Source of the DNA: Deltaproteobacteria bacterium
GTDB taxonomy: Bacteria > Myxococcota_A > Polyangia > JAAYKL01
DNA: 48,904 nt
Direction of reading: 5' to 3'
NCBI GenBank assembly: GCA_030595125.1
Contig: JAUVDV010000039.1
Location: 1 to 48,904 of the forward strand
The notes below the pieces were generated by a model that saw nothing but the letters and a program-made list of their open reading frames with translations, was not told the DNA's origin and searched no databases. The position numbers and the translations under genes are program-made. Below, piece after piece: positions 6,329-48,676 of this stretch; within the stretch, counting starts at the first letter, position 1, and each line of letters opens with the position of its first letter.

Positions 6329-7474
6329 TCAGTTCTGGGTATTGGCAGGTGGTTGCTCAATCGTGCCTTGTGGCAAGAGGGGGACTGTGGCCGACTCCTT
6401 TTCTCCGGAGAAGGCGAGCAGATAGGTTACGGCGCCAAGTAAAACGACGATGACCACCAACAGCGCTATCACTATTCCCTTGCCCTGACTTCCCGTGGCG
6501 TCATCTTTTTCGCGGGTGGCGTGATCCTCCTCGCGCGAAACAGTCTTGGCCGATTTTGTACGCGGACCGGGCGGGACAGAGTGCATCGGTCCCGCCTGTT
6601 CTTCTTTGGGAATAAGTGCCTTCAGGGCCTGAGCGAACTCCTTGGCCGAAGAGTAGCGATCGTCCCGGTTTTTTTCGAGCGCCTTGTCCATGATGGGATC
6701 GAGGATTGCCGGGAGATTGAGTTCGGGTCGCCGCTGGGTGACCTTGAACGGTGGAGACTTGATGTGATGCGCGATGTACTCCATGGGCTTGCTTCTGGGG
6801 AACGGTAGCTTCGCCGTGAGCATCTCGTAGAAGATGACGCCGAGAGAGTAGATGTCGGAGCGCGCATCCAGGGTTTCTCCGCGGGCCTGCTCGGGAGACA
6901 TGAATTCGGGCGTGCCGAAGATCATCCCCTCGCGGGTGAGCACAAGCGACCCGGGACGCATCCGTTGCTCTTTTATTTTTGCGAGACCGAAGTCGAGAAC
7001 CTTGGGGAAATCCGGGATGCCCCCCTGGGTGGTCAGAAGGATATTCTCGGGCTTGAGGTCGCGGTGGACGATTCCGACGCCGTGCGCTTCTTCGAGGGCG
7101 CCGAGAACCTGGATCATTATCTTGGCGGCTCGCGTGACCTCCATGGGTCCGTCCCTGCGTGTCAGGTGCGCCAGATCTGCGCCGTCCAGGTACTCCATGG
7201 CAATGTAGAGCTGTTCGGTTTCCTCCAGTTGCCCATAGAGGAAAACGCGTACCGTGTTTGGGTGCGAGAGCCTGCTCATGGCTCGCGCCTCACGCCTGAA
7301 GCGCGACAGCAGATCCTGTCGAGAGGCCAGCTTTTCGTGGAGGATCTTGATGGCGACCATGCGGTCCATTGCCGGTTGTTCGGCCTTGAACACCTCGCCC
7401 ATTCCTCCCTTGCCGATTCTTTCGAGGATCCGGAACTGGCCGAGAATTTCTTTTCCTATGAGGTCATCGTTCAT
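6329..7474 (-). CDS. Membrane-anchored eukaryotic-like Ser/Thr protein kinase
   Basis: Phosphorylates serine/threonine on target proteins. Domain order: kinase domain residues 14-290, Pro/Ser/Lys-rich juxtamembrane linker 290-333, one membrane helix about 334-356, then a short external tail of about 25 residues with no sensor domain. Catalytic features are intact: glycine loop GKGGMGEVF (21-29), lysine K43, HRDLKPEN with D139, DFG at 161-163 and GTPEFMSPEQ. The kinase is therefore predicted to be active. It is transcribed away from the SctQ-like gene, with only 45 bases between the two starts, so they may share a control region. FHA domains, which read phosphothreonine, occur in CpaF (12350-13873) and the protein at 35572-37164; these are possible targets, by inference. 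Confidence 0.95.
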   Translation of the reverse strand: MNDDLIGKEILGQFRILERIGKGGMGEVFKAEQPAMDRMVAIKILHEKLASRQDLLSRFRREARAMSRLSHPNTVRVFLYGQLEETEQLYIAMEYLDGADLAHLTRRDGPMEVTRAAKIMIQVLGALEEAHGVGIVHRDLKPENILLTTQGGIPDFPKVLDFGLAKIKEQRMRPGSLVLTREGMIFGTPEFMSPEQARGETLDARSDIYSLGVIFYEMLTAKLPFPRSKPMEYIAHHIKSPPFKVTQRRPELNLPAILDPIMDKALEKNRDDRYSSAKEFAQALKALIPKEEQAGPMHSVPPGPRTKSAKTVSREEDHATREKDDATGSQGKGIVIALLVVIVVLLGAVTYLLAFSGEKESATVPLLPQGTIEQPPANTQN

Positions 7475-7519: not shown

Positions 7520-8641
7520 ATGATATGCATGGAAAAGAGGTATCCACGTGGCCCTGCCCTCTGGCGCCCTAGATGCGTCGAACCAGGTGAGTGGGAGGCA
7601 AGGGAAAGACTTGCGATTTCTATCCCTTCAGGGGCGGATCGCCTCGATCTTCACTCCCTCGCCGAGGTGTTGAGGGCGGACAAGGCCGATCTCGAGATCA
7701 CGGGTTTTGGCCAGGTCCGAAACAACGCTGTGCCCGAGGAGGGAACGATCGTTGCGCTTTTCGGCGGTGGAGACGGCTGTGGCCAGCGAATGGCTCTGGT
7801 GTTGTCCGACAACCTGGCGCGCGATCTCGTGGATACAACGCTTGGCAGACCTCGGGGTTCCGTTGAAAAACGCCTGACCTCCGGCGAGGAAGGCGCGCTT
7901 CTCTTCGCGCTGGACAGAGCAGGAGGAGACTGGATGGATCTGGGTGGCGGCGGTTTTCGAATAAAGGGAATCCTCGCGGACTCGATGCAGATCGCCGAGT
8001 ATCTTCAGGGGCCTCCCAAGTGGTGGGTCAGGGCCGTACTCGCGACAGAGTTCGCGAAGGGGGAAGCCTGGCTGGCGCTGCGCGATCCGGCTTGTTTCGG
8101 CGGGGTGTCACCTCGGCGGGCACGAATTGACAGGGCGCTCGATTGGCCCGTCGAGTTCAAGATAATAGTGGGAACGTCGGCAGTGCCCGCTGCAGAACTG
8201 AAACGGATCGACACGGGAGACGTGCTGGTGCTCGATTGGTCGGCCTTCGTTGTTTGCGGCTCCGATACGGGTATGGCGCGGCTCGAATGTGGCCATGTCA
8301 AACGATTTGCCAGATTGCTGGACCACGGGCGTCTGGAACTGGTATCAACACGAGACTCGAGGGGTAGTATGAACGACACTGAAAATGTCGAGTTGAAAGG
8401 GCGGCTCTCGCAGCCGTCGGATGATGAGGCGAGATCCATGAACGTGGTGGTTCAGGTGGAAGTCGGACGGGTAACCATGACAGTGGATCAGGCAATCAAC
8501 CTGGTGCCTGGAAGGATGATCAGGCTCGACAGGGACGTGGGTCCGGAAGTCTCTCTTCGGGCAGGCGAAAAGTTGATCGCCACTGGCGAACTCGTTGACC
8601 ACGAGGGCCGATTGGCGGTCGAGGTGACGGAGGTAACATGA
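7520..8641 (+). CDS. sctQ: Type III secretion SctQ-like C-ring protein (two SpoA/FliN-type domains)
   Basis: A 373-residue protein resembling SctQ/YscQ/HrcQ, which form the cytoplasmic sorting platform of type III secretion and are related to flagellar FliM/FliN. The N-terminal 200 residues are divergent. Residues about 209-275 form a first SpoA-like domain, and residues 307-372 a clear second one with MNVVVQVEVGRVTMTVDQ, a PGR turn and IATGELVDHEGRLAVEVTEV. I chose ATG 7520, with AAGG 5 bases upstream; ATG 7529 in frame is an alternative. The next gene overlaps by ATGA. No other type III or flagellar gene is present here, so this copy is either an orphan or part of a system encoded elsewhere. 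Identification rests on the C-terminal domain and is good but not certain. Confidence 0.75.
   Translation: MICMEKRYPRGPALWRPRCVEPGEWEARERLAISIPSGADRLDLHSLAEVLRADKADLEITGFGQVRNNAVPEEGTIVALFGGGDGCGQRMALVLSDNLARDLVDTTLGRPRGSVEKRLTSGEEGALLFALDRAGGDWMDLGGGGFRIKGILADSMQIAEYLQGPPKWWVRAVLATEFAKGEAWLALRDPACFGGVSPRRARIDRALDWPVEFKIIVGTSAVPAAELKRIDTGDVLVLDWSAFVVCGSDTGMARLECGHVKRFARLLDHGRLELVSTRDSRGSMNDTENVELKGRLSQPSDDEARSMNVVVQVEVGRVTMTVDQAINLVPGRMIRLDRDVGPEVSLRAGEKLIATGELVDHEGRLAVEVTEVT
8359..8371 (+). promoter_or_regulatory. Candidate internal ribosome binding site and start for a short SctQ-C product
   Basis: GAGGGG at 8359-8364 lies four bases before an in-frame ATG at 8369 (M284 of the SctQ-like protein). 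Initiation there would give a 90-residue product (8369-8641) consisting of a short leader and the second SpoA domain. Yersinia YscQ, Salmonella SpaO and Shigella Spa33 are known to make such C-terminal products from an internal start. A second in-frame ATG (M307) exists further on. This is prediction only. Confidence 0.4.
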
Positions 8642-9135
8642 AAACGCGGTGGTGGTTTTTGGTTGCGGTAATCGCGTCGACGCTGATCGCCTGCGGCCCC
8701 GCAGACGACGGCGGGGGCGACGCAGTGGATGCGAAATCGATCAAGACGGGTGACGCAAAGGAAGTTGACGCGCGCGGACCTGCTTCGGACGCGGTTGCGC
8801 AGCAGAGTGCTCCGGATGTCAGGAAGATAACCGGCGTAGGCGCGACAAGCGCAGACGCAGGGGCGTGTGGCGCAGTGACGATTGATCTGACCTTCGGCAA
8901 GGGCTCTATGGTCGGTGGTCACATTGCTCTGGGCGACGACAAGCACGTCGTCAGGGGTATACTCGACGACGATACTCTGCGTTGCTGGATAGTGAGTGGT
9001 GTGGACAAGCCGGATTCGACGTTGCGTGGAACTCTGGTGGGAACAGCACAAGGAGACTCGTTTTCGGGAACCTTCAACCTCTCCGATGACGGCGCCGCAA
9101 AGGTGATCAACGGCACCTGGAAAAGTGGTGTTTAG
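8638..9135 (+). CDS. Predicted lipoprotein, function unknown
   Basis: A 165-residue protein with a lipoprotein signal peptide: a charged start, a hydrophobic segment and the lipobox LIAC with the lipidated cysteine at residue 19. A low-complexity Asp/Gly/Ala/Lys linker follows, and then a compact C-terminal domain of about 85 residues rich in beta-prone segments (ILDDDTLRCWIVSG, GTLVGTAQGDSFSGTF). I recognise no family. Its ATG overlaps the SctQ stop by ATGA, so the two are translationally coupled, which hints at a shared envelope or secretion function. Its 3' end overlaps the convergent PDZ lipoprotein gene by 4 bases. A lipoprotein partner could serve as pilotin or secretin accessory, but nothing in the sequence shows this. 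Confidence 0.8.
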   Translation: MKTRWWFLVAVIASTLIACGPADDGGGDAVDAKSIKTGDAKEVDARGPASDAVAQQSAPDVRKITGVGATSADAGACGAVTIDLTFGKGSMVGGHIALGDDKHVVRGILDDDTLRCWIVSGVDKPDSTLRGTLVGTAQGDSFSGTFNLSDDGAAKVINGTWKSGV

Positions 9136-9596
9136 TCTACAACGGGATAGGTGAGGGCCAGGGGGGCGCCGTCACGCAGGATGTCGAAGCGGACTTCAGT
9201 GGCGGTCTTGAGGGCTTCGAAAACCTCAAAATAGTGTTCCGGGCGTTCGATGGATTTGCCGTTGACCAGGGTAACCACGTCGTCCTCACGCAGATCGATG
9301 CAGGGATCGATGTCCACGCGGAACGACACGATCCTGAAACCGACGAACCTGCCGTAGGCCTTGTGCGAATCCGACTGGACCATGGCGAGTACATAGGCCG
9401 GACCTTGCGCCAGGAGCTCGTCCAGTTCACTTCTCACGATCCTGGGTTCGCCCACGCAAATTTTGTCAGGTGCGGTTTCGCCGTGTGCCGGGTCGGATGA
9501 AAGAGAGGTCTCTTCGAGCATCGCCGGATCAATGCTCGCCGCGCCGCATCCGGTTGCCCAGGCGGCGATGAGAACAAGAGAGAATGTGCGTGTCAT
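9132..9596 (-). CDS. PDZ-like lipoprotein (resembles the GspC C-terminal domain)
   Basis: A 154-residue protein with lipoprotein signal and lipobox ATGC (cysteine about residue 17). Residues about 75-154 form a PDZ-like fold with the pattern seen in the C-terminal domain of type II secretion GspC: FRIVSFRVD, a DLREDDVVTLVNGKSI turn, then a helix and RFDILRDGAPLALTYPV. PDZ domains bind peptide tails or partner proteins; here the domain would sit in the periplasm, anchored to a membrane. The ATG overlaps the tmk stop (ATGA), so it is expressed with thymidylate kinase, a pairing with no obvious functional logic. Neighbouring secretion-like genes (SctQ-like, CpaF/TadBC) make an envelope-machine role possible but unproven. 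Confidence 0.75.
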   Translation of the reverse strand: MTRTFSLVLIAAWATGCGAASIDPAMLEETSLSSDPAHGETAPDKICVGEPRIVRSELDELLAQGPAYVLAMVQSDSHKAYGRFVGFRIVSFRVDIDPCIDLREDDVVTLVNGKSIERPEHYFEVFEALKTATEVRFDILRDGAPLALTYPVVD

Positions 9597-10614: not shown

Positions 10615-11511
10615 CTAAAACAACTCACCGCGCAGCCATTTGATGACAAAGGGTCCCAGGAGGACGACGAAGACGCAGGCGAAGATGAGCATGAGTGGCC
10701 CCAGGATGAGTACGGCCGCGCGTGCTGCGGCCTGCTCTGCGGCCTGGGTGCGACGGGAGCGCATGACCCCGGCCTGGATACTGAGGACTTTCGCCAGCGG
10801 CGTGCCCTGCTTCTCGGCCTGCACCACTGCGGCGACGAACTGCCGAATAGCAGAATCTGGAACCCGCGTGGAGAGGTCAGAGAGCGCCGACTTCCTGGAG
10901 TGGCCCAGATCCAGTTTCCGGAGGATGTGATGAAGCTCGAACCGCAGGGGCTCTCTCTTTCCCATTCGATCGGTGACCTGTCGAAGGGCTCCAGGGAAGT
11001 CCACGCCGGCCTGCATCGCCAGGGATGCGAGATCGATGGCGTGAGGTAGACGTCGACAGATGGTTCGAATTCGTCGACGGATCGTTTCGTCCAGTTTGAA
11101 CCAGGGGATGGCGGCGCCGACTATCGCGCCGAGGACCGCGCCGGATCCTGCGGAACCCACCGAGAGGGCGGCGAACGACCCTCCCACGATCAGACAAGAA
11201 GCAGCAGAAAATACGTTCAATGAGAGATACTCGTTCACATCCAGACCCAGGGGATGACCGGCGATGACGAGCTTGGTCCTGATAGTTTCTTTGAGATTGG
11301 CAAGCGGTATACGTTCGATCTCACGGGCGATGGAGCGGATGAACGGATCGAGCAGCCGAAACCAGGGAGTTTCGTCGAGGGCGGCCCTGCGTCGCTCTCC
11401 GCGTTCGCCGGTGAGTTCTTCGAGAGCCAGCCCGTGGGGCCACAACCCGAAAAGCACGAGGGCGCTGCAAGCAGCGGTGAAAACCGGCCCCCCAAAGACG
11501 AGCGTCATCAT
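10615..11511 (-). CDS. tadC: TadC-like inner-membrane secretion protein (T2SSF domain)
   Basis: A 298-residue membrane protein of the GspF/TadC type, an inner-membrane platform component of Tad/Flp-type pilus or secretion machines. A hydrophobic N terminus, a paired hydrophobic stretch about residues 100-145 and a C-terminal hairpin (AAVLILGPLMLIFACVFVVL) flank a cytoplasmic T2SSF domain containing LPHAIDLASLAMQAGVDFPGAL and the paired motif VVQAEKQGTPLAKVL. The start ATG at 11511 overlaps the tadB stop (ATGA); a longer frame upstream lies inside tadB and is not needed. Together with cpaF and tadB it forms a compact three-gene unit. No pilin, prepilin peptidase or secretin lies alongside, so the remaining parts must be elsewhere if the machine is complete. 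Confidence 0.87.
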   Translation of the reverse strand: MMTLVFGGPVFTAACSALVLFGLWPHGLALEELTGERGERRRAALDETPWFRLLDPFIRSIAREIERIPLANLKETIRTKLVIAGHPLGLDVNEYLSLNVFSAASCLIVGGSFAALSVGSAGSGAVLGAIVGAAIPWFKLDETIRRRIRTICRRLPHAIDLASLAMQAGVDFPGALRQVTDRMGKREPLRFELHHILRKLDLGHSRKSALSDLSTRVPDSAIRQFVAAVVQAEKQGTPLAKVLSIQAGVMRSRRTQAAEQAAARAAVLILGPLMLIFACVFVVLLGPFVIKWLRGELF

Positions 11512-12353
11512 ATGTCCACCGCCATTATCTTGCGTATGAGGGCCACCGCGGAGATTTCCAACATCGCCGCGATGCCGAGCAGAATCCACCCGATCGGATC
11601 ATGCCAGAGGGGTTCGAGCCAGGTTGGATCGATCTTGTGCAGGGCGAGCGTCAGAAACGGGGGAACCAGCCCCATCACCAGGGCCTGGCTCCTTCCCTCG
11701 GCGGTTTTGGTCCTGATCACGCCTTCCAGTCGCGACATCTCCCGAATGGAGCGGGCGGTTTCCTCCAGGATCCCGGAGAGATTACCGCCGGTCTTTCGCC
11801 CCATGATAGCTGCCGCCACCGCTGCGTGAAGTCCGGGGATATCGAGCCTGTTGGCGAGAGAGGTGAGCGCTTCGTCCAGAGGACGTCCGAGTCTGACCTC
11901 GGCCATTACGTCACCGATCTCTTCTCCCATAGGCTGCTCCAGGTGCTTTTTCAGGTAGCCCAGTGCGTCGCCCAGGTTAGGCATTGTGCGAAGGGCGTTG
12001 GCCAGCGCGGTCAGAGTTTCGTCCAGTTGATCCGTGAGGCGGAACAGTCGTTTTTCGGATGCCGCAGAGAGCAGCCAGGGAGGCAGGATCAACACGGCGA
12101 GAGCCGCCCCCGCGGGGATGAGATTGTGCGAGCAAGCGGCCGCTGCTGCCAGGACGGACGATGCGGCGATCTGCGCCGCCGGGAAACGACGGTATCGAGG
12201 GTGGAGTCGATTGAACTCGGATCGCGAGTTCCACCAGGATACGTAGCGCAGGTAGGGAGAGAGGATCGCCGGTGAAGAGGAAGCCGCAACGAGGGCGAAA
12301 GTCACTGCGGCGGCAATGAAGGATGCGGAGCACAGGGAGATGCCGAAGGTCAT
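11508..12353 (-). CDS. tadB: TadB-like inner-membrane secretion protein (T2SSF domain)
   Basis: A 281-residue membrane protein of the TadB family, the second GspF-like platform protein of Tad/Flp systems. N-terminal membrane helices lie at about residues 5-25 and 60-90; the cytoplasmic T2SSF domain includes LDETLTALANALRTMPNLGDAL and VAAAIMGRKTGGNLSGIL, and the C terminus has two further helices (ALVMGLVPPFLTLAL, GWILLGIAAMLEISAVAL). I chose ATG 12353, which overlaps the cpaF stop by ATGA; the same frame is open further upstream only as a shadow of cpaF. It ends overlapping tadC, so cpaF-tadB-tadC are translated as a coupled set, as in canonical tad operons. Confidence 0.9.
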   Translation of the reverse strand: MTFGISLCSASFIAAAVTFALVAASSSPAILSPYLRYVSWWNSRSEFNRLHPRYRRFPAAQIAASSVLAAAAACSHNLIPAGAALAVLILPPWLLSAASEKRLFRLTDQLDETLTALANALRTMPNLGDALGYLKKHLEQPMGEEIGDVMAEVRLGRPLDEALTSLANRLDIPGLHAAVAAAIMGRKTGGNLSGILEETARSIREMSRLEGVIRTKTAEGRSQALVMGLVPPFLTLALHKIDPTWLEPLWHDPIGWILLGIAAMLEISAVALIRKIMAVDI

Positions 12354-13873
12354 GACCCCGCCCTGGTGAAAGAGGGGAGCCATCCGGTGGCGCACAGGAA
12401 CGACTCCCCTTCCTGGTCCGGTCCGCCCGCGACCAGCCGGAAAATCTCGCTGGTGTTGATCCCACCATTGTCCCCCATTCCTACCACCTCGGCGATAGAC
12501 GTGATCCTCCGGGAGCCGTCCGGCATGCGCGCTTGCTGGACTACGAGGTTTACGGCGGCGGCTATCTGCTCTCTGATGGCCCGGGACGGAAGATCGAGCC
12601 CCGCCATGAGCGAGAGGGTTTCGAGGCGGGAGAGGGCTTCTCTGGGAGAGTTTGCGTGGGTGGTGGTCAATGAACCGTCGTGGCCAGTGTTCATGGCCTG
12701 TAGCATATCGAGGGCCTCGCCGCCGCGGCACTCCCCGACGACGATTCGATCGGGCCTCATCCGCAGGGCGTTTCTGACAAGGTCCCTGATCGTGACCTGT
12801 CCCTTGCCCTCGGCGTTGGGAGGGCGGGTTTCCAGGGTGACAACGTGTGGCTGCGGGAGCCGCAGCTCTGCCGCGTCCTCGATAGTGACTATTCGTTCCC
12901 CGGATGGGATGGCGGCGGCGAGCACATTGAGGAGGGTGGTCTTGCCGGATCCGGTTCCTCCCGAGATGACGATGTTGTGTCTGGCCGTAACGGCGGCAAA
13001 GAGGAAGTCTGCTACCTGGCGATCGAGAGTCTTGTATCGAATGAGATCCTCGATCGAAAGGGGCGTCGACGCGAACTTTCGGATGGTGATGGCCGGACCG
13101 CGGATGGCCAGCGGCGGTATTATGGCGTTGACCCTCGAGCCGTCTGCCAATCGGGCGTCGACCATGGGGGAGGCCTCGTCGATGCGGCGGCCCAGCGGGG
13201 TGACTATTCTCTCGATGATGGTGCGGACCGAGTCCTCCGATGTGAAACACATGCGAGATTTCTCCAGGCGCCCGTCCCGTTCCACATAGACGTTCTCGGG
13301 GTCGATCACCATGATCTCCGAGATGCTGTCATCTGCCAGCAGTCCCTCGATGGGCCCGAGCCCGAGAGCTTCGTTTGCGAGGTCCGTTACGAGTGACGTC
13401 CTCTCATCGCCCACCGGGATACCCTCCCGGTGAAGGAGCCTTTCGAGGGCGGCCTCCACTCTGGGTCTAAGTTCTTCGCCCTTCGCGTCCACGGAGCCGA
13501 GATCTATGTGTTCGATCAGGCCTTCGAGTACCCGCCGTCGCAGGGCGGGGTGATCCTGTTTTGGATCGTCGTTGTCGGCTCGTCGGGGAACGAGGGTGAA
13601 CGGGGAGATGCCGATCTCCGTTCCAAAAGGCGCCTCGAAGTGGTTGTCCGCAGGTTCCGCGTCCAGGAGAATACCGTTTGGAGAGAGATTTTTTACCGAT
13701 ACTCCCGATTTTGAGGCGACCATGATCGCGTGTTTGCGCGAAACCCCCCGGCTGTCGAGGACGATGCCGGAATCCACGGACCTGCCCACCGAGATCTCCA
13801 TTTCCAGGGGGAAAGACTGTTCACCGATCATCTCTGCGCCAAGGCGGATATCGATTGTTACCGTGTTGTTCAT
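12350..13873 (-). CDS. cpaF: FHA-CpaF fusion: secretion ATPase with N-terminal phosphothreonine-binding domain
   Basis: A 507-residue CpaF/TadA-type hexameric ATPase that would power assembly or secretion at the TadB/TadC platform. The C-terminal ATPase (about residues 110-507) has Walker A GGTGSGKT at 305-312, IVTIEDAAELRLPQ (Asp box), VGECRGGEALDML (Walker B region) and a conserved TTTHANSPREAL segment. Unusually, residues 1-98 are a complete FHA domain: VGRSVDSGIVLD, SRKHA and NLSPNGILL, which place the conserved Gly-Arg, Ser, His and Asn residues that bind phosphothreonine. The start MNNTVT at 13873 begins exactly at the FHA domain; upstream codons in the frame are the antisense of a linker-lipoprotein gene and were rejected. 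Regulation by a Ser/Thr kinase such as the one at 6329-7474 is plausible. Confidence 0.94.
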   Translation of the reverse strand: MNNTVTIDIRLGAEMIGEQSFPLEMEISVGRSVDSGIVLDSRGVSRKHAIMVASKSGVSVKNLSPNGILLDAEPADNHFEAPFGTEIGISPFTLVPRRADNDDPKQDHPALRRRVLEGLIEHIDLGSVDAKGEELRPRVEAALERLLHREGIPVGDERTSLVTDLANEALGLGPIEGLLADDSISEIMVIDPENVYVERDGRLEKSRMCFTSEDSVRTIIERIVTPLGRRIDEASPMVDARLADGSRVNAIIPPLAIRGPAITIRKFASTPLSIEDLIRYKTLDRQVADFLFAAVTARHNIVISGGTGSGKTTLLNVLAAAIPSGERIVTIEDAAELRLPQPHVVTLETRPPNAEGKGQVTIRDLVRNALRMRPDRIVVGECRGGEALDMLQAMNTGHDGSLTTTHANSPREALSRLETLSLMAGLDLPSRAIREQIAAAVNLVVQQARMPDGSRRITSIAEVVGMGDNGGINTSEIFRLVAGGPDQEGESFLCATGWLPSFTRAGS

Positions 13874-14036
13874 GGGTGGGTTGCATGGCAAGACCGATGC
13901 CAGGGCGGTCATCCAGTATCTACCGGGGGTTGTGGGATATCGAGCGGCGGCGGCGCGCGGCGGACGGCGGATTCCCGGCCGGTTTCGCCTTTGCGGGAGC
14001 TTTCTGATACCATCGAATCTCGCAAAAGGGGATTCC

Positions 14037-15578
14037 ATGGAGAAACGTGAGATCGTTAAACGATGGGTGCTCGTCGCGGTGCTGGCTGCCGTTGGCGTCG
14101 TGATCTGGTCCTGTTCGGACGGGGGCGGCGTGGATGCGGACGCCGGGATCGATGCCGGGACCGACGCCGACACCGATGGCGACACCGACACCGACACAGA
14201 CTCGGACAGCGACACCGATACGGATCCATTCTTCGGTATCGTCTCTCCTGCCGACGGCTACGGCGTGCTCGGCAGCGTCAATGTGGTGGTCGAGGTCGCC
14301 GCGATAGAGATCGATGAAGTGCGGTTCTTCCTCGACGACGAAACGGAGCCGTACTGTGTCGACGAACCCGAGTACATGAACTGTTTCTTCGATCTGTCTG
14401 CCTCGGATGTCGGCGCGACCCACGAGATCACCGCCGTGGGCGTGTTCGGCGAGGATGAGGTGGCCAGCGACAGCATCACTGTTGAGCGCGTGGCCGAGAT
14501 GAGCGAGATCTGCATGGACACTGATAGTCAGGACGAGGTGCTGGTCACCTGCCTCGAACAGCTCGACGGCGGCCTGGCGGCTGGTAACATCGGCGACTCC
14601 TACGACAATCGGGACGGAGACCACACTACTCTCAACACCTCCAACCACCCGGACGTGACCTACCTGCATCTGGGCTACGGATACGGCGGGCTCGGCGGCG
14701 CTACAGAGAACCAGGACCCGCTGGCCCCGCTGGTGGGCAACGCCTCTCTGTGCATCACCGCAGATGCGGGTTGGTGCGAGGGCATGGTCAGGTTCATGTT
14801 GCGCTCCGGCATGTCAGGGACGTTCTTTGATCTCTACACCGGTAGCAACTTCTACTGGTTCCCCGAGCACACAGACCACGACACCGAGGATCTGGCGTTC
14901 TACATGGTGCCGTTCACAAACAGCTCACAGGGATCGTCCGGATCGGAGATGGACGAGATGGGCAAGTGGTTCTATTCGCTGGCCGCGCTGGCTCCTGACA
15001 CGAAGCTGGCGCTCGAGGAGTCGGGGACGCTGATGCCGGCGATCCAGATGGCCTTCCGGCGCACCCGCGTCGCCACGGACAGCGAGTACATGTCACCTCT
15101 GGCCCACGCCAACGCGTTCGACAACGTGGACAACGCCCACGAGATGGTGCGGATGGTCAACCTGATGCAACCGGACAACATCCCGCCAATGGTCGAACTC
15201 GAGGTGATCGACGAGACCTGGACGGCAGGCGAGCAGGAATTCACAACACCGGTGGCGATCGCCCGCCACTGGGAGGGCGACACCGAAACGCCCCGGGCGA
15301 TCACGGTAAGCGCGGCCGGCTCGTTCGATCCCAACGATCGTGAACTATCTTATCACTGGGTGATTGTTCGCGGTGATCCGAGTCTGATCCATCTGACCCC
15401 GCTCGACGAGCGCTGGACCGAGGTGGAGATCGAGTTCGAGTGGCACGCGGAGGAGACCATCACTATCGGCATCGAGGACCGTGTCTCCACCCTGGCCGTG
15501 GTCGGTGTGTTCGTGCACAACGACGTTTACTTCTCCGCCCCCGCCTTCGTCAGCTCGTCAACCTCAGACGACCTCTGA
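14037..15578 (+). CDS. Large secreted lipoprotein with Asp/Thr linker, Ig-like and PKD-like domains
   Basis: A 513-residue protein. The start at 14037 has AAAAGGGG just upstream; longer frames to the left run through the cpaF gene and were rejected. A signal peptide ends in VIWSC (lipidated cysteine about residue 25). A low-complexity Asp/Thr/Ser linker of about 35 residues follows, then an Ig-like beta domain (GIVSPADGYGVLGSVNVVVE, about 65-150), a central region of about 250 residues of unknown fold, and a C-terminal PKD-like domain (SAAGSFDPNDRELSYHWVI). The protein is probably anchored to the outer membrane with its domains outside. The centre contains helical stretches and His/Asp/Glu residues (HTDHDTEDL) but I recognise no enzyme motif. 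It heads a run of four plus-strand lipoprotein genes. Confidence 0.85.
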   Translation: MEKREIVKRWVLVAVLAAVGVVIWSCSDGGGVDADAGIDAGTDADTDGDTDTDTDSDSDTDTDPFFGIVSPADGYGVLGSVNVVVEVAAIEIDEVRFFLDDETEPYCVDEPEYMNCFFDLSASDVGATHEITAVGVFGEDEVASDSITVERVAEMSEICMDTDSQDEVLVTCLEQLDGGLAAGNIGDSYDNRDGDHTTLNTSNHPDVTYLHLGYGYGGLGGATENQDPLAPLVGNASLCITADAGWCEGMVRFMLRSGMSGTFFDLYTGSNFYWFPEHTDHDTEDLAFYMVPFTNSSQGSSGSEMDEMGKWFYSLAALAPDTKLALEESGTLMPAIQMAFRRTRVATDSEYMSPLAHANAFDNVDNAHEMVRMVNLMQPDNIPPMVELEVIDETWTAGEQEFTTPVAIARHWEGDTETPRAITVSAAGSFDPNDRELSYHWVIVRGDPSLIHLTPLDERWTEVEIEFEWHAEETITIGIEDRVSTLAVVGVFVHNDVYFSAPAFVSSSTSDDL

Positions 15579-19296: not shown

Positions 19297-19551
19297 CTAG
19301 CCGGCGTCTCCGCCATCAGGACCACCGTCGGCGTCGGTATCGGTGTCGGTGTCGGTATCGGTATCGGTATCAGTATCGGTGTCAGTGTCAGTGTCAGTGT
19401 CGGTGTCAGTGTCAGTGTCGGCGTCAGTGTCAGTGTCGGTGTCGGTGTCCGTGCCTGCGTCGTCGTCGATGACATCGTCATCATCGCCACAGCTGACAAC
19501 AACCAGCCCCAGGGCCAGAATTGCCATCAAGACAATTACCAAACGTTTCAT
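19297..19551 (-). CDS. Lipoprotein stub: signal peptide plus Asp-Thr linker only
   Basis: An 84-residue product with a strong ribosome site (AGGAGGAG 8 bases before the ATG) and a clean lipoprotein signal ending VVVSC (cysteine 21). The rest is an Asp-rich stretch, about 25 Asp-Thr pairs and a short ADGGPDGGDAG tail before the stop. In the related genes here the linker leads into a folded domain; none follows in this gene, and the 98 bases to the next gene hold no continuation in any frame. Either the domain was lost by recombination in the repeat, or the product is a minimal lipid-anchored acidic brush. It is expressed divergently from ligA. Confidence 0.55.
   Translation of the reverse strand: MKRLVIVLMAILALGLVVVSCGDDDDVIDDDAGTDTDTDTDTDADTDTDTDTDTDTDTDTDTDTDTDTDTDTDADGGPDGGDAG
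19331..19455 (-). repeat. In-frame hexanucleotide-type tandem repeat encoding Asp-Thr
   Basis: About twenty imperfect GACACC/GATACC-type hexamers (read on the minus strand) in tandem, inside the lipoprotein stub. Copy-number changes would alter length but not frame. Similar arrays occur in five other genes of the window. Confidence 0.85.
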
Positions 19552-29691: not shown

Positions 29692-30729
29692 CTATTCGAT
29701 GGGAGGCATGTCGTTACAGGCGAGTTCTATCGAATCCAGTATTGTAGCAAATGCTCCGGCGAGATCTCCATCGCAGATATTGGCCCAGGTAGCATAACTC
29801 CCGGTCATGCTCAGGAACTCGTGGAGCCGGGGGGTTGCGGACGCAGCCCCGAAGGCGCTCGAGCAGCTGGAATTTTCAGGCCCTGATATCACGCCGAATA
29901 CCATGTGTTCGTAAGTCGGCTTGATGGAGAGGAACCCCTTGGCATCCGAAACGTACAGGTCGAGAGGACCGGGGGTGAAGTTCTCCGCATCCCAGAAGGC
30001 GGTCCAGTACGTGTTTGCCAGGGACTCGTCGTCCTCGTCGGTGATGATTATTGCCACGAACAGAGCGTCGTCGCGGAGGAAGCCGGCGTTCTCGGCGTTG
30101 ATGTGACCCTCTCCCAGGATGCCGTCGGTCATTCCGCGCCGAATAGCCTCCAGGGGCATCTCGTTGCTCCATCCACCTGTTCCAAGTTCGGCCACACACG
30201 CGAACTGATCCACCACGTCGGAGCTCGGGCCGGTCATGAACAGACTGGTCGGAGCGTCGCACGAGCCTCCGTTCCCCAGGGGCGTATTCTGGAGAACTCC
30301 GTCTTCTCCCTCCTCGAGGGGGCATCCGATGGGCGTACAGTCGTGGTGGTCCACATCCGTCGAGGTTACCCCGACGTGGTAATCGAGCTGACCACCGGTG
30401 CCGCCCACTTCGTATGCGTCGAGGGCCTCGATGAAGCCGGCGAAGTTGGCGATGAGGTTGGTCTGCTCGTCGCCCATGCTCCCCGAGTTGTCTATGACAA
30501 AGAGAATATCCATCTTGTCACAACCATCATCAGCGTCGCCGTCGGAGTCACTGTCGGAATCGCTGTCAGAGTCGCCGTCCGTATCAGTGTCCCCATCTGT
30601 GTCCGTGTCCGTATCCCCATCGGTATCGCCGTCCGCGCTGCTGGGATCACTCGTGTCTTCACATCCCGGCAAGGCTGCCACGAGCAATGCCGATTGAAGG
30701 ATGAAGAGAGCTATTTTGAGGGTGTTCAT
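29692..30729 (-). CDS. vWA-domain lipoprotein with Asp-Thr/Asp-Ser linker
   Basis: A 345-residue lipoprotein. I chose the ATG at 30729, preceded by GAGAGGA; an upstream in-frame ATG at 30741 is less well placed. The signal ends VAALPGC (cysteine 23); a linker of Asp-Thr-Asp-Gly and Asp-Ser repeats spans about residues 33-69. A von Willebrand factor A domain follows, with a complete metal-binding MIDAS motif DNSGSM (D80-S84) and IIITDEDDES later. The domain also has seven or more cysteines, suggesting disulfides outside the cytoplasm. vWA domains bind protein ligands via the metal ion; here a surface-exposed adhesin or scaffold is likely but unproven. It is divergent from another linker lipoprotein at 30863. 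Confidence 0.87.
   Translation of the reverse strand: MNTLKIALFILQSALLVAALPGCEDTSDPSSADGDTDGDTDTDTDGDTDTDGDSDSDSDSDSDGDADDGCDKMDILFVIDNSGSMGDEQTNLIANFAGFIEALDAYEVGGTGGQLDYHVGVTSTDVDHHDCTPIGCPLEEGEDGVLQNTPLGNGGSCDAPTSLFMTGPSSDVVDQFACVAELGTGGWSNEMPLEAIRRGMTDGILGEGHINAENAGFLRDDALFVAIIITDEDDESLANTYWTAFWDAENFTPGPLDLYVSDAKGFLSIKPTYEHMVFGVISGPENSSCSSAFGAASATPRLHEFLSMTGSYATWANICDGDLAGAFATILDSIELACNDMPPIE
30536..30650 (-). repeat. In-frame tandem repeat encoding Asp-Thr/Asp-Ser linker
   Basis: Hexamer-type repeats inside the vWA lipoprotein gene, read on the minus strand. They are imperfect (GAC/GAT plus ACA/ACG/TCC/TCT) and keep the frame. Confidence 0.8.
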
Positions 30730-30862
30730 ATTTCCTCTCATTTTTTTGAATTTGTCTTTTCCTGTTCTCATGTCCACCAATACAAGTGTACACCTTGATG
30801 ATTAATGGATGCGTTTAAACATATTCGTTCAAATCAATGATACAATCATTGGGGAGCTGATA

Positions 30863-31840
30863 ATGAACAAAAGAATCGTAAAACTCTTTTTTCTTTTGGT
30901 GCTGCTGACGGTTGGAAACTGTGCGGGGCTCGAGGAAACTGAGGGGCTGGGCACCATAGATCTGGATGCCGATACGGACACGGATACGGACGGCGACTCT
31001 GACAGCGACTCCGATTCCGACAGTGACTCCGACTCCGATTCCGACAGTGACACGGACACCGACTCGGACACCGACTCGGACACCGATACCGATGCAGACA
31101 CAGATACCGACACGGACACTGATACAGGCACGGACACGGGTACGGACACAGGCACGGACACGGGTACGGATACGGGCACGGACACGGGCACCGATACGGA
31201 CACAGACACTGATACCGGGCCGGACATCTCGAATCCCGGGGCCCAGTGCCACCCGACAGGAACCTGCCTTGGAAACGCTCATTGCGCCCAGGTATTTGTG
31301 TCCGAGATCACCAGCTATTGCTATCTGAATTGCGGCGGGGCTCCCTCGGTCTGCACCAGCACTGCATGGCCCAACTGTTACGCGGGAGTTACTCCGCCGA
31401 CATGCTTTGCCACGACCACGGTTACGGGCACCTTCAATTGCGTCATCAACAACTGGTCCTCTGTTTCCAGCAATGTCGCCATGGTGAATGACGGCACAAC
31501 CACCTATCATACCTCCTGTGCGGCCCAGTACGTTGCGTCGACCAGTGAATATCAGATACAGATCAATTACAGTCCGACGAGCGACACACAGCTCGATATC
31601 CTGGTGATATGGCCCGCAGCGGATCACGCGACCACCCCGGATATCACCAATGCGGAGTTTCAGGTCGTGGATGTCGACTATTCGGGAACAACTCCCATCG
31701 AACGCTGGATCAGGGCTTTCGGGCTTCCACCGGGCACGGGGACCGTCAACCTCTCACAGGCCAGCACTACAGCCGGAGGAACCATCGCGGGAACTCTTAG
31801 CTTGACGGGTTATTCCTACGACGCCGAGCTCACTCCATAG
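30863..31840 (+). CDS. Lipoprotein with the longest Asp-Thr/Asp-Ser linker
   Basis: A 325-residue lipoprotein; ATG 30863 follows GGGGAG by 7 bases. Signal MNKRIVKLFFLLVLLTVGNC (cysteine 20). Residues about 35-120 are almost entirely Asp-Thr, Asp-Ser and Gly-Thr-Asp repeats, over 80 residues of acidic linker. A cysteine-rich segment with about nine cysteines (QCHPTGTCLGNAHC, YCYLNC, CTSTAWPNC) follows, then a C-terminal beta-sandwich-like domain of about 120 residues (ATTTVTGTFNCVINNWSS, LDILVIWPAA, GGTIAGTLSLTGYSYDA). No family is recognised. It starts divergently from the vWA lipoprotein, and the pair share a 133-base control region, suggesting they act together on the cell surface. Confidence 0.86.
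   Translation: MNKRIVKLFFLLVLLTVGNCAGLEETEGLGTIDLDADTDTDTDGDSDSDSDSDSDSDSDSDSDTDTDSDTDSDTDTDADTDTDTDTDTGTDTGTDTGTDTGTDTGTDTGTDTDTDTDTGPDISNPGAQCHPTGTCLGNAHCAQVFVSEITSYCYLNCGGAPSVCTSTAWPNCYAGVTPPTCFATTTVTGTFNCVINNWSSVSSNVAMVNDGTTTYHTSCAAQYVASTSEYQIQINYSPTSDTQLDILVIWPAADHATTPDITNAEFQVVDVDYSGTTPIERWIRAFGLPPGTGTVNLSQASTTAGGTIAGTLSLTGYSYDAELTP
30967..31217 (+). repeat. Longest in-frame Asp-Thr/Asp-Ser-coding tandem repeat
   Basis: About 250 bases of imperfect GACACG/GACTCC/GATACC hexamers and GGCACGGACACG dodecamers inside the lipoprotein gene. The later part (31125-31195) is built from the 12-base unit, giving TDTG. All units are multiples of three. Confidence 0.85.
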
Positions 31841-35571: not shown

Positions 35572-37164
35572 TTACCAGGTGATCTTCTTTGGCCCCTTTT
35601 GTGAGGGCGGCCTTTCCGCGTCGTTGACCTGACCACCGGACGAGGGATAGGACGGCGGCGGAGTGTACGGGGGTGGGGTGGGATCCGGTTCTTCCGGAGC
35701 GGGTTTTGGATTCTTCTTTTTGGAAGGGGTGCTGTCGGCGTAGGGGTTGACGGTTCCCTTCTTCTTTGCCGGTTTGGGCGTCGGTGAGGTCTTGTAGGGA
35801 TTTGGGTCCACGGGTTTGGGCTTGGGTATCCCCGCTCCTGTGGAAGGATGCCCGACGGTGGCGGTCCCACGCCTGTCCACGGTCTTGCTCAGGGCGTTTC
35901 GTTTGTTGATGCAGTCATCCGGGACCTCCGGGATTTCTCCTATTTCTACGAGGACCGCTTTCGCCTGCGCCAGGTTCCCCGATTGGGACATGAAGCGAGC
36001 CGTCTCCAGCATTTCCTCGCACAGGTTGCCTGACATTATCCGTAGCTGTTCGATGTCGTAGTAGTGGCTCGATCGCGGGATCTTGGACAGGGAGTCCACA
36101 GCCTTTTTCCAGTCACGAGTCTCCTGGGCGGAGAGTGCGGCGATGAGGGCGGACTGGGCATCCATCTCCGCGAGGGCCGTCTTCTTGAAATCCCGGGCCG
36201 ACTCGCTCTCCGGCTTGAGGCTGGTGGCCTGCGCGAACATTCTCGCGGCCTCGGCCCAATCCTCCGCCTGCATCTTGTCCTTGCCGGCCTCGACAAGTTC
36301 CTCATACCCCATGCCGTCGGTGATGGTATTCTCGTCCTTGTCGCTATCGCCGTCGGCGTCGCCATCGGGGCCGCCGAGGAAAACGACGAGGAGAATGACC
36401 GCAACCGCGAGGACCGCCAGGGCTCCGAGGCCAAGGAAGAGCTTGTTCGATTTTCCGGACGAGCCCGGCTCGATGGAGTCGCCGGTAGCGGGGGCGAACT
36501 CGTACGGTTCGCCTGGCGCTACGAACCTGAGGCGCACGGTACCCAGTTCGATGATATCCGCAGATTTCAGCACGTAATCGTCCCGCCTGGCCCCGTTGAC
36601 GAAGATTCCGTTGATGCTGTCGAGGTCGGAGATGGTCCACTGGTGATCATCTCCATCTAGGCGGGCGTGTGCTCTTGAGATGGATGGATCGTTGATATTG
36701 ATGTTGGTTTCATCTGATCGTCCAATGACGTACAGATTGAGAGTCATGTCGTATTCCAGGCCCAGGTGCGGACCTTCGACCATGACCAGACGGGCGTGGG
36801 TGGTCACCTTGCCGATTCCCGCGTTGTCGCCCGCAGCCATCTGGCGGCCCATGGGCACACCGTCGGAAACATCGGTGCGAACGGAGAGATTGTAGTCGCC
36901 AATGTAAATCTGATCGCCGGAGGAAATGACCCTGGAGGCATCGACGATCGGATCTCCGTTTATCTTGGTTCCGTTATCGCTTCCCAGGTCGTAGACCACG
37001 AACCTGTCATCGTCTTCGCGCACGAGCCGGGCGTGGTTTCGAGACACGTTGCGATCCGTCAATCGGATCGTATTGCCTTCCCTGCGACCGATGGTGACCT
37101 CGTCCCGTATCAACGGCACGATAGTCGTCTTGCCTTCATCGTCACAAATGACAAGCTTAAACAT
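35572..37164 (-). CDS. Double-FHA membrane protein with helical repeats and proline-rich tail
   Basis: A 530-residue protein. FHA domain 1 (residues 15-100) has IGRREGNTIRL, SRNHARLV and DNGTKING; FHA domain 2 (residues 128-215) has IGRSDETNINI, SRAHARLD and INGIFVNG. Both keep the Gly-Arg, Ser, His and Asn that grip phosphothreonine. A membrane helix at 242-264 is followed by an acidic Asp-rich patch, a TPR-like helical region (280-420, with AEDWAEAARMFAQATSLKP) and a Pro/Lys/Ser-rich C-terminal tail of about 100 residues. The FHA domains are N-terminal to the single helix and should be cytoplasmic, the repeats outside. It may be a receptor for phosphorylated partners, perhaps through the Ser/Thr kinase at 6329-7474. 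A short AAAAAG/CTTTTT hairpin lies just before its end (35554-35568). Confidence 0.94.
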   Translation of the reverse strand: MFKLVICDDEGKTTIVPLIRDEVTIGRREGNTIRLTDRNVSRNHARLVREDDDRFVVYDLGSDNGTKINGDPIVDASRVISSGDQIYIGDYNLSVRTDVSDGVPMGRQMAAGDNAGIGKVTTHARLVMVEGPHLGLEYDMTLNLYVIGRSDETNININDPSISRAHARLDGDDHQWTISDLDSINGIFVNGARRDDYVLKSADIIELGTVRLRFVAPGEPYEFAPATGDSIEPGSSGKSNKLFLGLGALAVLAVAVILLVVFLGGPDGDADGDSDKDENTITDGMGYEELVEAGKDKMQAEDWAEAARMFAQATSLKPESESARDFKKTALAEMDAQSALIAALSAQETRDWKKAVDSLSKIPRSSHYYDIEQLRIMSGNLCEEMLETARFMSQSGNLAQAKAVLVEIGEIPEVPDDCINKRNALSKTVDRRGTATVGHPSTGAGIPKPKPVDPNPYKTSPTPKPAKKKGTVNPYADSTPSKKKNPKPAPEEPDPTPPPYTPPPSYPSSGGQVNDAERPPSQKGPKKITW

Positions 37165-47830: not shown

Positions 47831-48676
47831 CTACGGCGTTACCGTCCCTCTAACGACGATATTGTCGACTCTCCAGGTTCCGCCGGGGCCGGAGGCTCCG
47901 GACGCTCCCACAAAGAAAATGACAGGTACGGTGTATGGTCCCGCCAGCGCGCTCAGATCTACTGTGTTCATGGGCGAAGCGGTGAAGGCGGTGTGAGTGG
48001 TTCCGGTTTCCGCAATAACAAGACCCGAGCCGTCGTCAAGTACGATCGCCCAATCGGTGGGGCCGGTGGGGGAGCTACGGTCGTCGAACTGAAACTCGTC
48101 GAGCGTGATGGACCCACCGGCGGGAGGCGTGACGAGGAAGTAGAAATAGTTGGGTGCGATAGTATCGTTCCATCCGGTGTCCGAAATCGCGCGTCCCGGG
48201 TTACCGACGAAGTCGGTGTACGAGCCGTCCGCAGTGTCCATGTCCGTGGACGCGACTCCAGTCGCCAGGTATGTCGGAGTCTCTGTGAAGGTAGTCACGC
48301 TGTCATCGAATGAGTAGACCACTATGTCGATGTATGGATCGATACTTCCATCCGGTCCCCCGTCGACATCCGTGTCCGTATCGGTATCGGTGTCCGTACT
48401 TCCATCCATGCCCGCGTCGGCATCCGTGTCCGTATCGGTATCGGTGTCCGTACTTCCATCCATGCCCGCGTCGGCATCCGTGTCGGTATCCGTGTCGGTA
48501 TCCGTGTCGGTATCGGTGTCCGTGTCCGTATCGGAGTCCGTGTCGGTATCGGAGTCCGTGTCGGCATCGGTGTCGGTATCGCCCCCTGCGTCTTGAGTAC
48601 TATTACCATCATCACCACAACTGCACAGTCCCAGGCTGAGCAGCGCAGCCATGAGCAGCATTATTGAATGTTTCAT
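47831..48676 (-). CDS. Lipoprotein with Asp-Thr linker and C-terminal beta-sandwich-like domain
   Basis: A 281-residue lipoprotein. AAGGAATG lies upstream of the ATG. Signal ending LGLCSC (cysteine about 20); linker of about 80 residues of Asp-Thr and Asp-Ala repeats, including an 18-residue unit (DADAGMDGSTDTDTDTDT) present twice in perfect tandem. The remaining 170 residues form a beta-rich domain with an Asp/Tyr/Phe-rich N part and GTWRVDNIVVRGTV at the end, the GxWxVDxIxV pattern common in jelly-roll, lectin-like surface domains (MAM/CBM-like). A carbohydrate-binding role is possible. It faces away from the window's right edge. Confidence 0.86.
   Translation of the reverse strand: MKHSIMLLMAALLSLGLCSCGDDGNSTQDAGGDTDTDADTDSDTDTDSDTDTDTDTDTDTDTDTDTDADAGMDGSTDTDTDTDTDADAGMDGSTDTDTDTDTDVDGGPDGSIDPYIDIVVYSFDDSVTTFTETPTYLATGVASTDMDTADGSYTDFVGNPGRAISDTGWNDTIAPNYFYFLVTPPAGGSITLDEFQFDDRSSPTGPTDWAIVLDDGSGLVIAETGTTHTAFTASPMNTVDLSALAGPYTVPVIFFVGASGASGPGGTWRVDNIVVRGTVTP
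48367..48474 (-). repeat. Perfect tandem duplication of 54 bases
   Basis: 48367-48420 and 48421-48474 are identical. They encode the same 18-residue linker unit twice. The duplication preserves the reading frame and indicates recent expansion within the linker. Confidence 0.95.

What the first reader, a model, noticed from the sequence alone, without database searches (positions are those of the whole stretch)
7520..8641. Orphan type III secretion SctQ/FliN-like protein beside a Ser/Thr kinase
The C-terminal SpoA-type domains are clear, yet no other type III secretion or flagellar gene lies in 48.9 kb. The gene is divergent from an active Ser/Thr kinase with 45 bases between starts, and coupled by ATGA to a lipoprotein. 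SpoA proteins normally work only within a sorting platform with SctK, SctL and SctN. This may be a relic, part of a system split across the chromosome, or a SpoA module recruited to another machine such as the Tad trio nearby.
Basis: partly seen in the sequence, partly recalled or inferred. Interest (0 to 1): 0.6.

Follow-up and report, generated by a model that had tools for sequence, protein, structure and literature searches.

The report
Secretion-ring gene of a scattered machine
The lone gene encodes the cytoplasmic ring protein (SctQ) of a type III secretion system whose other core genes lie singly or in pairs all over the chromosome, an arrangement kept across a whole class of myxobacterium-like bacteria, whereas such machines are normally encoded in one cluster.

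Summary
ORF 7520-8641 has two SpoA domains (PF01052 74 bits) behind a FliM/CheC-like N-domain. No other type III gene lies in the window. It is not a relic or a Tad part: it is the only SpoA gene in the genome. Single copies of FliO+SctR, SctS+SctT, SctV, SctN, SctJ and a short SctU lie on six other contigs, each among unrelated genes. In sampled class relatives most core genes recur just as scattered (0.05-2 Mb apart in well-assembled genomes). All 20 class SctQ loci fetched and 38 of 80 named relatives are orphan; the other 42 (Myxococcus, Anaeromyxobacter, Acidobacteria, Pseudomonadota) sit in clusters. SctR places the set with non-flagellar systems, apart from flagellar FliP (99/99). A same-family genome carries both this set and a flagellum. 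Genes checked within the genus are under purifying selection. The flanking Ser/Thr kinase and overlapping lipoprotein are conserved partners of orphan sctQ. Best reading: a functional, dispersed version of the myxobacterial non-flagellar T3SS, reduced further in this genus (SctV, SctJ and SctU have lost domains). A needle-less, Tad-assisted predation role is plausible by analogy with Myxococcus xanthus but untested.

The parts
7520..8641 (+). sctQ: FliM-middle/CheC-like N-domain (about 7586-8104), SpoA1 (about 8147-8341), SpoA2 (8432-8635)
8432..8635 (+). the only SpoA/FliMN_C match over cut-off in the whole genome (SpoA2)
6329..7474 (-). divergent PknB-type Ser/Thr kinase with C-terminal TM; same kinase type (about 59-91% identity) near orphan sctQ in 12 further loci, nearly all divergent
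8638..9135 (+). lipoprotein overlapping sctQ by ATGA; family recurs directly downstream of orphan sctQ in about 20 loci; modelled as an eight-strand beta meander
9132..9596 (-). PDZ protein with GspC-type C-terminus, convergent; relatives near sctQ in 7 other loci
10615..14215 (-). Tad genes (TadC-like T2SSF, TadB-like region, FHA-TadA ATPase): neighbours of sctQ in this genus only; context, not part of the T3SS

Best explanation
The gene encodes a divergent SctQ, the cytoplasmic ring/sorting-platform subunit of one non-flagellar type III secretion apparatus whose core genes are dispersed over the chromosome. Shown: SctQ, SctN, SctV, SctR with FliO, SctS with SctT, SctJ and a short SctU each occur in this genome on separate contigs among unrelated genes. 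The same scattering is seen for most of them in relatives. The genes tested are under purifying selection, and the SctR tree separates the set from flagella. Inferred: the products assemble as usual, with the SctQ SpoA domains docking the ATPase complex to the base under the SctV/RSTU gate. The adjacent kinase probably controls assembly or expression, and the lipoprotein works in the envelope for the same process. The genus lacks SctV SD1-SD2, SctJ D1 and the SctU autocleavage domain, which suggests an exporter without the usual chaperone docking and substrate switch, compatible with a needle-less machine like Myxococcus T3SS*.
For: Single SpoA gene. Partners in the same genome: SctV, SctR, SctN, SctU, SctJ, SctT, SctS; families confirmed; unrelated neighbours. 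Scattering in 15 relatives: 18, 29-32, 38, 39, distances 86. Orphan versus clustered loci: 51, 57, 92. SctR tree 99/99 split from flagellar FliP. G040 holds flagellar and dispersed sets. dN/dS. Structure and profiles: FliM middle domain Z 15.7 plus SpoA matches. FliO is known in Myxococcota non-flagellar T3SS (PMC12403147).
Against: SctQ and most partners score below NCBIfam equivalog cut-offs. SctU was searched only in this genome, is truncated and weak (26 and 20 bits). G042 lacks SctR, SctS and SctT; G010 lacks SctT. SctL, SctK, SctD, SctC, SctF and substrates were not searched for. The genome is a 203-contig assembly. No expression or interaction data. Trees do not make the dispersed set one clade.
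Confidence: 0.82

Rival explanations
1. Decaying remnant of a flagellum or of an older T3SS, kept by chance.
For: Most family members have three or four SpoA matches versus one here, which suggests flagellum loss in this genus; SctV, SctJ and SctU have lost domains; G042 lacks R, S and T.
Against: dN/dS of SctQ, R, S, T, N, V 0.04-0.27, SctJ 0.34; intact ORFs in three genus members; SctR groups with non-flagellar systems; G040 has a flagellum and the dispersed set.
Confidence: 0.08
2. The dispersed T3SS is a needle-less predation machine working with a Tad/Kil-type pilus; SctQ is its kinase-controlled platform (a functional extension of the best explanation, not exclusive of it).
For: M. xanthus T3SS* lacks secretin, needle and translocon, is recruited by the Kil Tad pilus and is needed for prey lysis (PMC12075869, PMC10433427); FliO shared; Tad genes within 2-6 kb in this genus; SctU and SctV lost parts that serve switching and chaperone docking.
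Against: Tad linkage not conserved outside the genus; absence of secretin, needle and translocon was not tested; no known predatory phenotype.
Confidence: 0.4
3. A SpoA module recruited to the Tad apparatus instead of a T3SS.
For: Tad genes within 2-6 kb in the window and in G016.
Against: Orphan sctQ in other families has no Tad neighbour and coexists with the rest of a T3SS.
Confidence: 0.04
4. A FliY/CheC-like phosphatase of a signalling pathway that uses its SpoA domains for localisation.
For: The N-domain has the FliM-middle/CheC fold; a kinase is adjacent.
Against: No CheC-type E-x2-N-x(20-24)-P motif in any of 24 homologues; two SpoA domains and a TIGR02551 match; best structural match is the FliM middle domain rather than CheC.
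Confidence: 0.03

Closest known systems
Needle-less T3SS* of Myxococcus xanthus (MXAN_2434-2464) and the 'Myxo' non-flagellar T3SS of Abby & Rocha 2012
   Same: SctQ, J, N, R, S, T, U, V and FliO; same phylum; SctR and SctN fall near it and away from flagella
   Different: One gene cluster there; single genes and pairs over the chromosome here. SctV, SctJ and SctU reduced in this genus. Absence of secretin and needle not tested here
Scattered T3SS of Chlamydiales (at least four loci, PMC3459982)
   Same: Functional non-flagellar T3SS split over the genome
   Different: Chlamydial core genes sit in about three or four loci; here nearly every core gene stands alone
Flagellar FliM/FliN C-ring
   Same: FliM-middle fold plus SpoA domains
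   Different: Both SpoA domains in one protein; no second SpoA gene in the genome; G040 has this set besides its flagellum
Injectisome SctQ (YscQ, SpaO, HrcQ)
   Same: Two C-terminal SpoA domains, TIGR02551 match, profile matches to YscQ-C and HrcQb
   Different: About 18-24% identity to clustered SctQ, below the curated cut-off, not in an sctQRST operon

Membership tests
SpoA / FliMN_C superfamily | Match to PF01052 above gathering score | tested here: met
   74.3 bits versus 23.8, two stretches
SctQ (TIGR02551) | Two tandem SpoA domains at the C-terminus | tested here: met
SctQ (TIGR02551) | Score above the curated equivalog cut-off 100.8 | tested here: not met
   81.5 bits: so called a divergent SctQ-type protein, not a TIGR02551 equivalog
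Non-flagellar T3SS | Export core SctRSTUV and ATPase SctN in the same genome | tested here: met
   SctU weak and truncated
Non-flagellar T3SS | Phylogenetically separate from flagellar orthologues | tested here: met
   SctR 99/99; only six flagellar FliP in the tree, so bounded
Non-flagellar T3SS | Genes clustered at one or a few loci (usual, not universal) | tested here: not met
   Seven contigs in G000; 51 kb to 2.2 Mb apart in G135 (except SctS-SctT); 122 kb or more in G100 and G071
Myxococcus needle-less T3SS* | No secretin, needle or translocon | not tested
Myxococcus needle-less T3SS* | FliO encoded with the apparatus | tested here: met
   FliO-SctR pair, PF04347 56.6 bits, TIGR03500 62.6 over 55.25
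Myxococcus needle-less T3SS* | Role in prey lysis with a Tad pilus | not testable with these tools
   Needs mutants
CheC/FliY phosphatase | E-x2-N-x22-P type catalytic motif | tested here: not met

The most novel reading that the evidence does not exclude
A whole class of bacteria runs a type III export machine whose genes have been dispersed since before its families diverged, wired to Ser/Thr kinases: an active kinase divergent from sctQ, and a pseudokinase-GYF-TM protein beside sctJ that may stand in for SctD. Phosphorylation rather than operon order would coordinate assembly, and the output would be delivered through a Tad pilus instead of a needle.
Probability: 0.2. Interest if true: 0.8.

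Novelty: new variant of a known kind. Interest (0 to 1): 0.62.

Why it matters
T3SSs are usually found by looking for gene clusters, so a system with one gene per locus is missed by cluster-based surveys; a published homology survey of Myxococcota bins found at least half of the T3SS homologues only in the Myxococcaceae bin (PMC11821767). The conserved sctQ-kinase and sctQ-lipoprotein pairs give concrete new candidate components. They make it testable how an unclustered nanomachine is coordinated, and whether needle-less T3SS* predates the split of the myxobacterial classes.

Tried and rejected
Relic flagellum: rejected on SctR placement, dN/dS and G040. Tad recruitment: rejected on neighbourhoods. 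CheC-type phosphatase: motif absent. SctN tree with F1 outgroup: root unreliable, long branches. SctV tree: long branches for f2 and f20. Monophyly of the dispersed set against Myxococcus clusters: unresolved in three trees, so one or several dispersals cannot be told apart. Lipoprotein fold: only weak avidin-like matches (best E 1e-3), so no function is drawn from it. SctP-like gene before sctQ in L059 and L053: Flg_hook 20 and 14.3 bits, both below cut-off 29.8, a lead only. TadC dN/dS was computed on wrong coordinates and is disregarded; the SctJ value was recomputed. The SctQ model has low confidence overall (pLDDT 63). Failed calls from wrong coordinates, terms or ids: 21, 44, 64, 65, 76; one search was a formatting failure of this report.

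Full report
Observation. The ORF at 7520-8641 is real and as described: 45 bases between the divergent starts, ATGA overlap with a lipoprotein. It carries two SpoA domains (PF01052 74.3 bits) and matches SctQ TIGR02551 at 81.5 bits, below the 100.8 cut-off. A 24-row profile matches solved FliN, HrcQb and YscQ-C at the C-terminus and FliM at the N-terminus. The AlphaFold2 model (mean pLDDT 62.9) matches the FliM middle domain at Z 15.7, 2.9 A over 160 residues. Hence the architecture is FliM-middle, SpoA1, SpoA2. No other T3SS profile hits the window.

Whole genome. G000 has 5.39 Mb in 203 contigs and is 95% complete. It has one SpoA match, in the window. The other core genes are present once each: SctV on C80, FliO-SctR on C120, SctN on C26, a 230-aa SctU on C43, SctJ on C145, SctS-SctT on C50. 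Families were confirmed by Pfam and NCBIfam. Each lies inside its contig among unrelated genes. So the system is split, one or two T3SS genes per locus.

Relatives. Of 143 class genomes, 108 have SpoA; the two genus mates have one match each, most of the family three or four. In 16 chosen genomes, G000 included, the same family profiles find SctV and SctN in all, SctR, SctS and SctJ in 15, SctT in 14. Coordinates show the genes far apart: in the one-contig genome G135, SctJ, SctS-SctT, SctV, SctR and SctN are 51 kb to 2.2 Mb apart; in G100, SctQ is 1.56 Mb from the next T3SS gene on its contig. Some relatives keep small groups, such as SctR-SctS-SctT in G053. G040, same family, has a flagellar cluster and the dispersed set. 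All 20 class SctQ loci fetched have no other T3SS gene. Of 80 named relatives, 38 are orphan, nearly all Myxococcota MAGs including Sandaracinaceae and Polyangiaceae, and 42 are clustered, including Myxococcus, Anaeromyxobacter, Acidobacteria and Pseudomonadota. That the class is Polyangia is inferred from these names; the genome handles bear none. Some orphan loci are short contigs, and five named loci repeat genomes of the class sample.

Origin. In the SctR tree the dispersed, Myxococcus/Anaeromyxobacter and injectisome sequences are separated from flagellar FliP at 99/99 (one divergent injectisome row, L124, falls outside); within that group the order is unresolved. SctN agrees but its root is unreliable. 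FliO beside SctR fits the report that FliO is frequent in Myxococcota non-flagellar T3SS.

Selection and reduction. In the genus, dN/dS for SctQ, R, S, T, N, V is 0.04-0.27, FliO 0.18-0.29, SctJ 0.34, against 0.12-0.13 for acetyl-CoA synthetase. SctU was not tested. SctV keeps the membrane part and SD3-SD4 but lacks most of the stretch covering SD1-SD2 (profile positions 302-472); SctJ matches only the second YscJ domain; SctU ends after the membrane part. That SD1-SD2 holds the chaperone site and that the SctU C-domain is the substrate switch is general knowledge, not tested here.

Neighbours. The kinase type beside sctQ (about 59-91% identity) recurs near orphan sctQ in 12 further loci from several families, nearly always divergent. 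The lipoprotein family recurs directly downstream in about 20 loci, often with a 4-base overlap; the profile built from one family finds the window protein at 3.4e-6 against all ORFs. Beside sctJ sits a kinase-like protein with GYF, TM and AgmX-type tail regions in families f1, f13, f23 and, more weakly, f10; in f1 and f23 the catalytic loop reads HGA instead of HRD, so it is probably a pseudokinase. sctST in f1 follow a GltJ-like protein. These are candidate components; linkage is evidence of association only.

Known systems. M. xanthus T3SS* is one cluster lacking secretin, needle and translocon, recruited by the Kil Tad pilus and needed for lysis. Abby and Rocha described clustered Myxo systems and scattered ones in Chlamydiales. 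No paper found in the open library describes the dispersed class-wide set; subscription papers, including Thiery 2022, could not be read.

Verdict. Ordinary protein family, unusual organisation: a dispersed non-flagellar T3SS with conserved kinase and lipoprotein partners of SctQ. Membership in a non-flagellar T3SS is well supported; the needle-less predation role is analogy.

Noticed in passing
L155:8796-10715 (-), contig C145: Kinase-like protein (HGA for HRD) with GYF, TM and AgmX-like tail, directly before SctJ; homologues beside SctJ in four families. Topologically a possible SctD substitute.
   Followed up: partly
L156:8365-11344 (-), contig C50: GltJ-like (zinc ribbon, GYF, AgmX tail) and MshEN-response regulator-TPR proteins just upstream of sctS-sctT in family f1.
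   Followed up: partly
window 12350-14215 (-): TadA/CpaF ATPase with an N-terminal FHA domain, next to TadB/TadC-like genes.
   Followed up: partly
window 35572-37164 (-): Protein with two FHA domains (also scores with the YscD cytoplasmic domain model, 106.8 bits) and weak TPR; no evidence that it is SctD.
   Followed up: partly
window 19297-19551, 29692-31840, 47831-48676 and other contigs: Many lipoproteins with long Asp-Thr/Asp-Ser repeat linkers after the lipobox.
   Followed up: no
L014:899-1078 and 15049-15225: Two near-identical short ORFs (MKQRHSFTNLLYHMVF...) 14 kb apart near sctR, perhaps fragments of a REP-type transposase (from memory, not tested).
   Followed up: no
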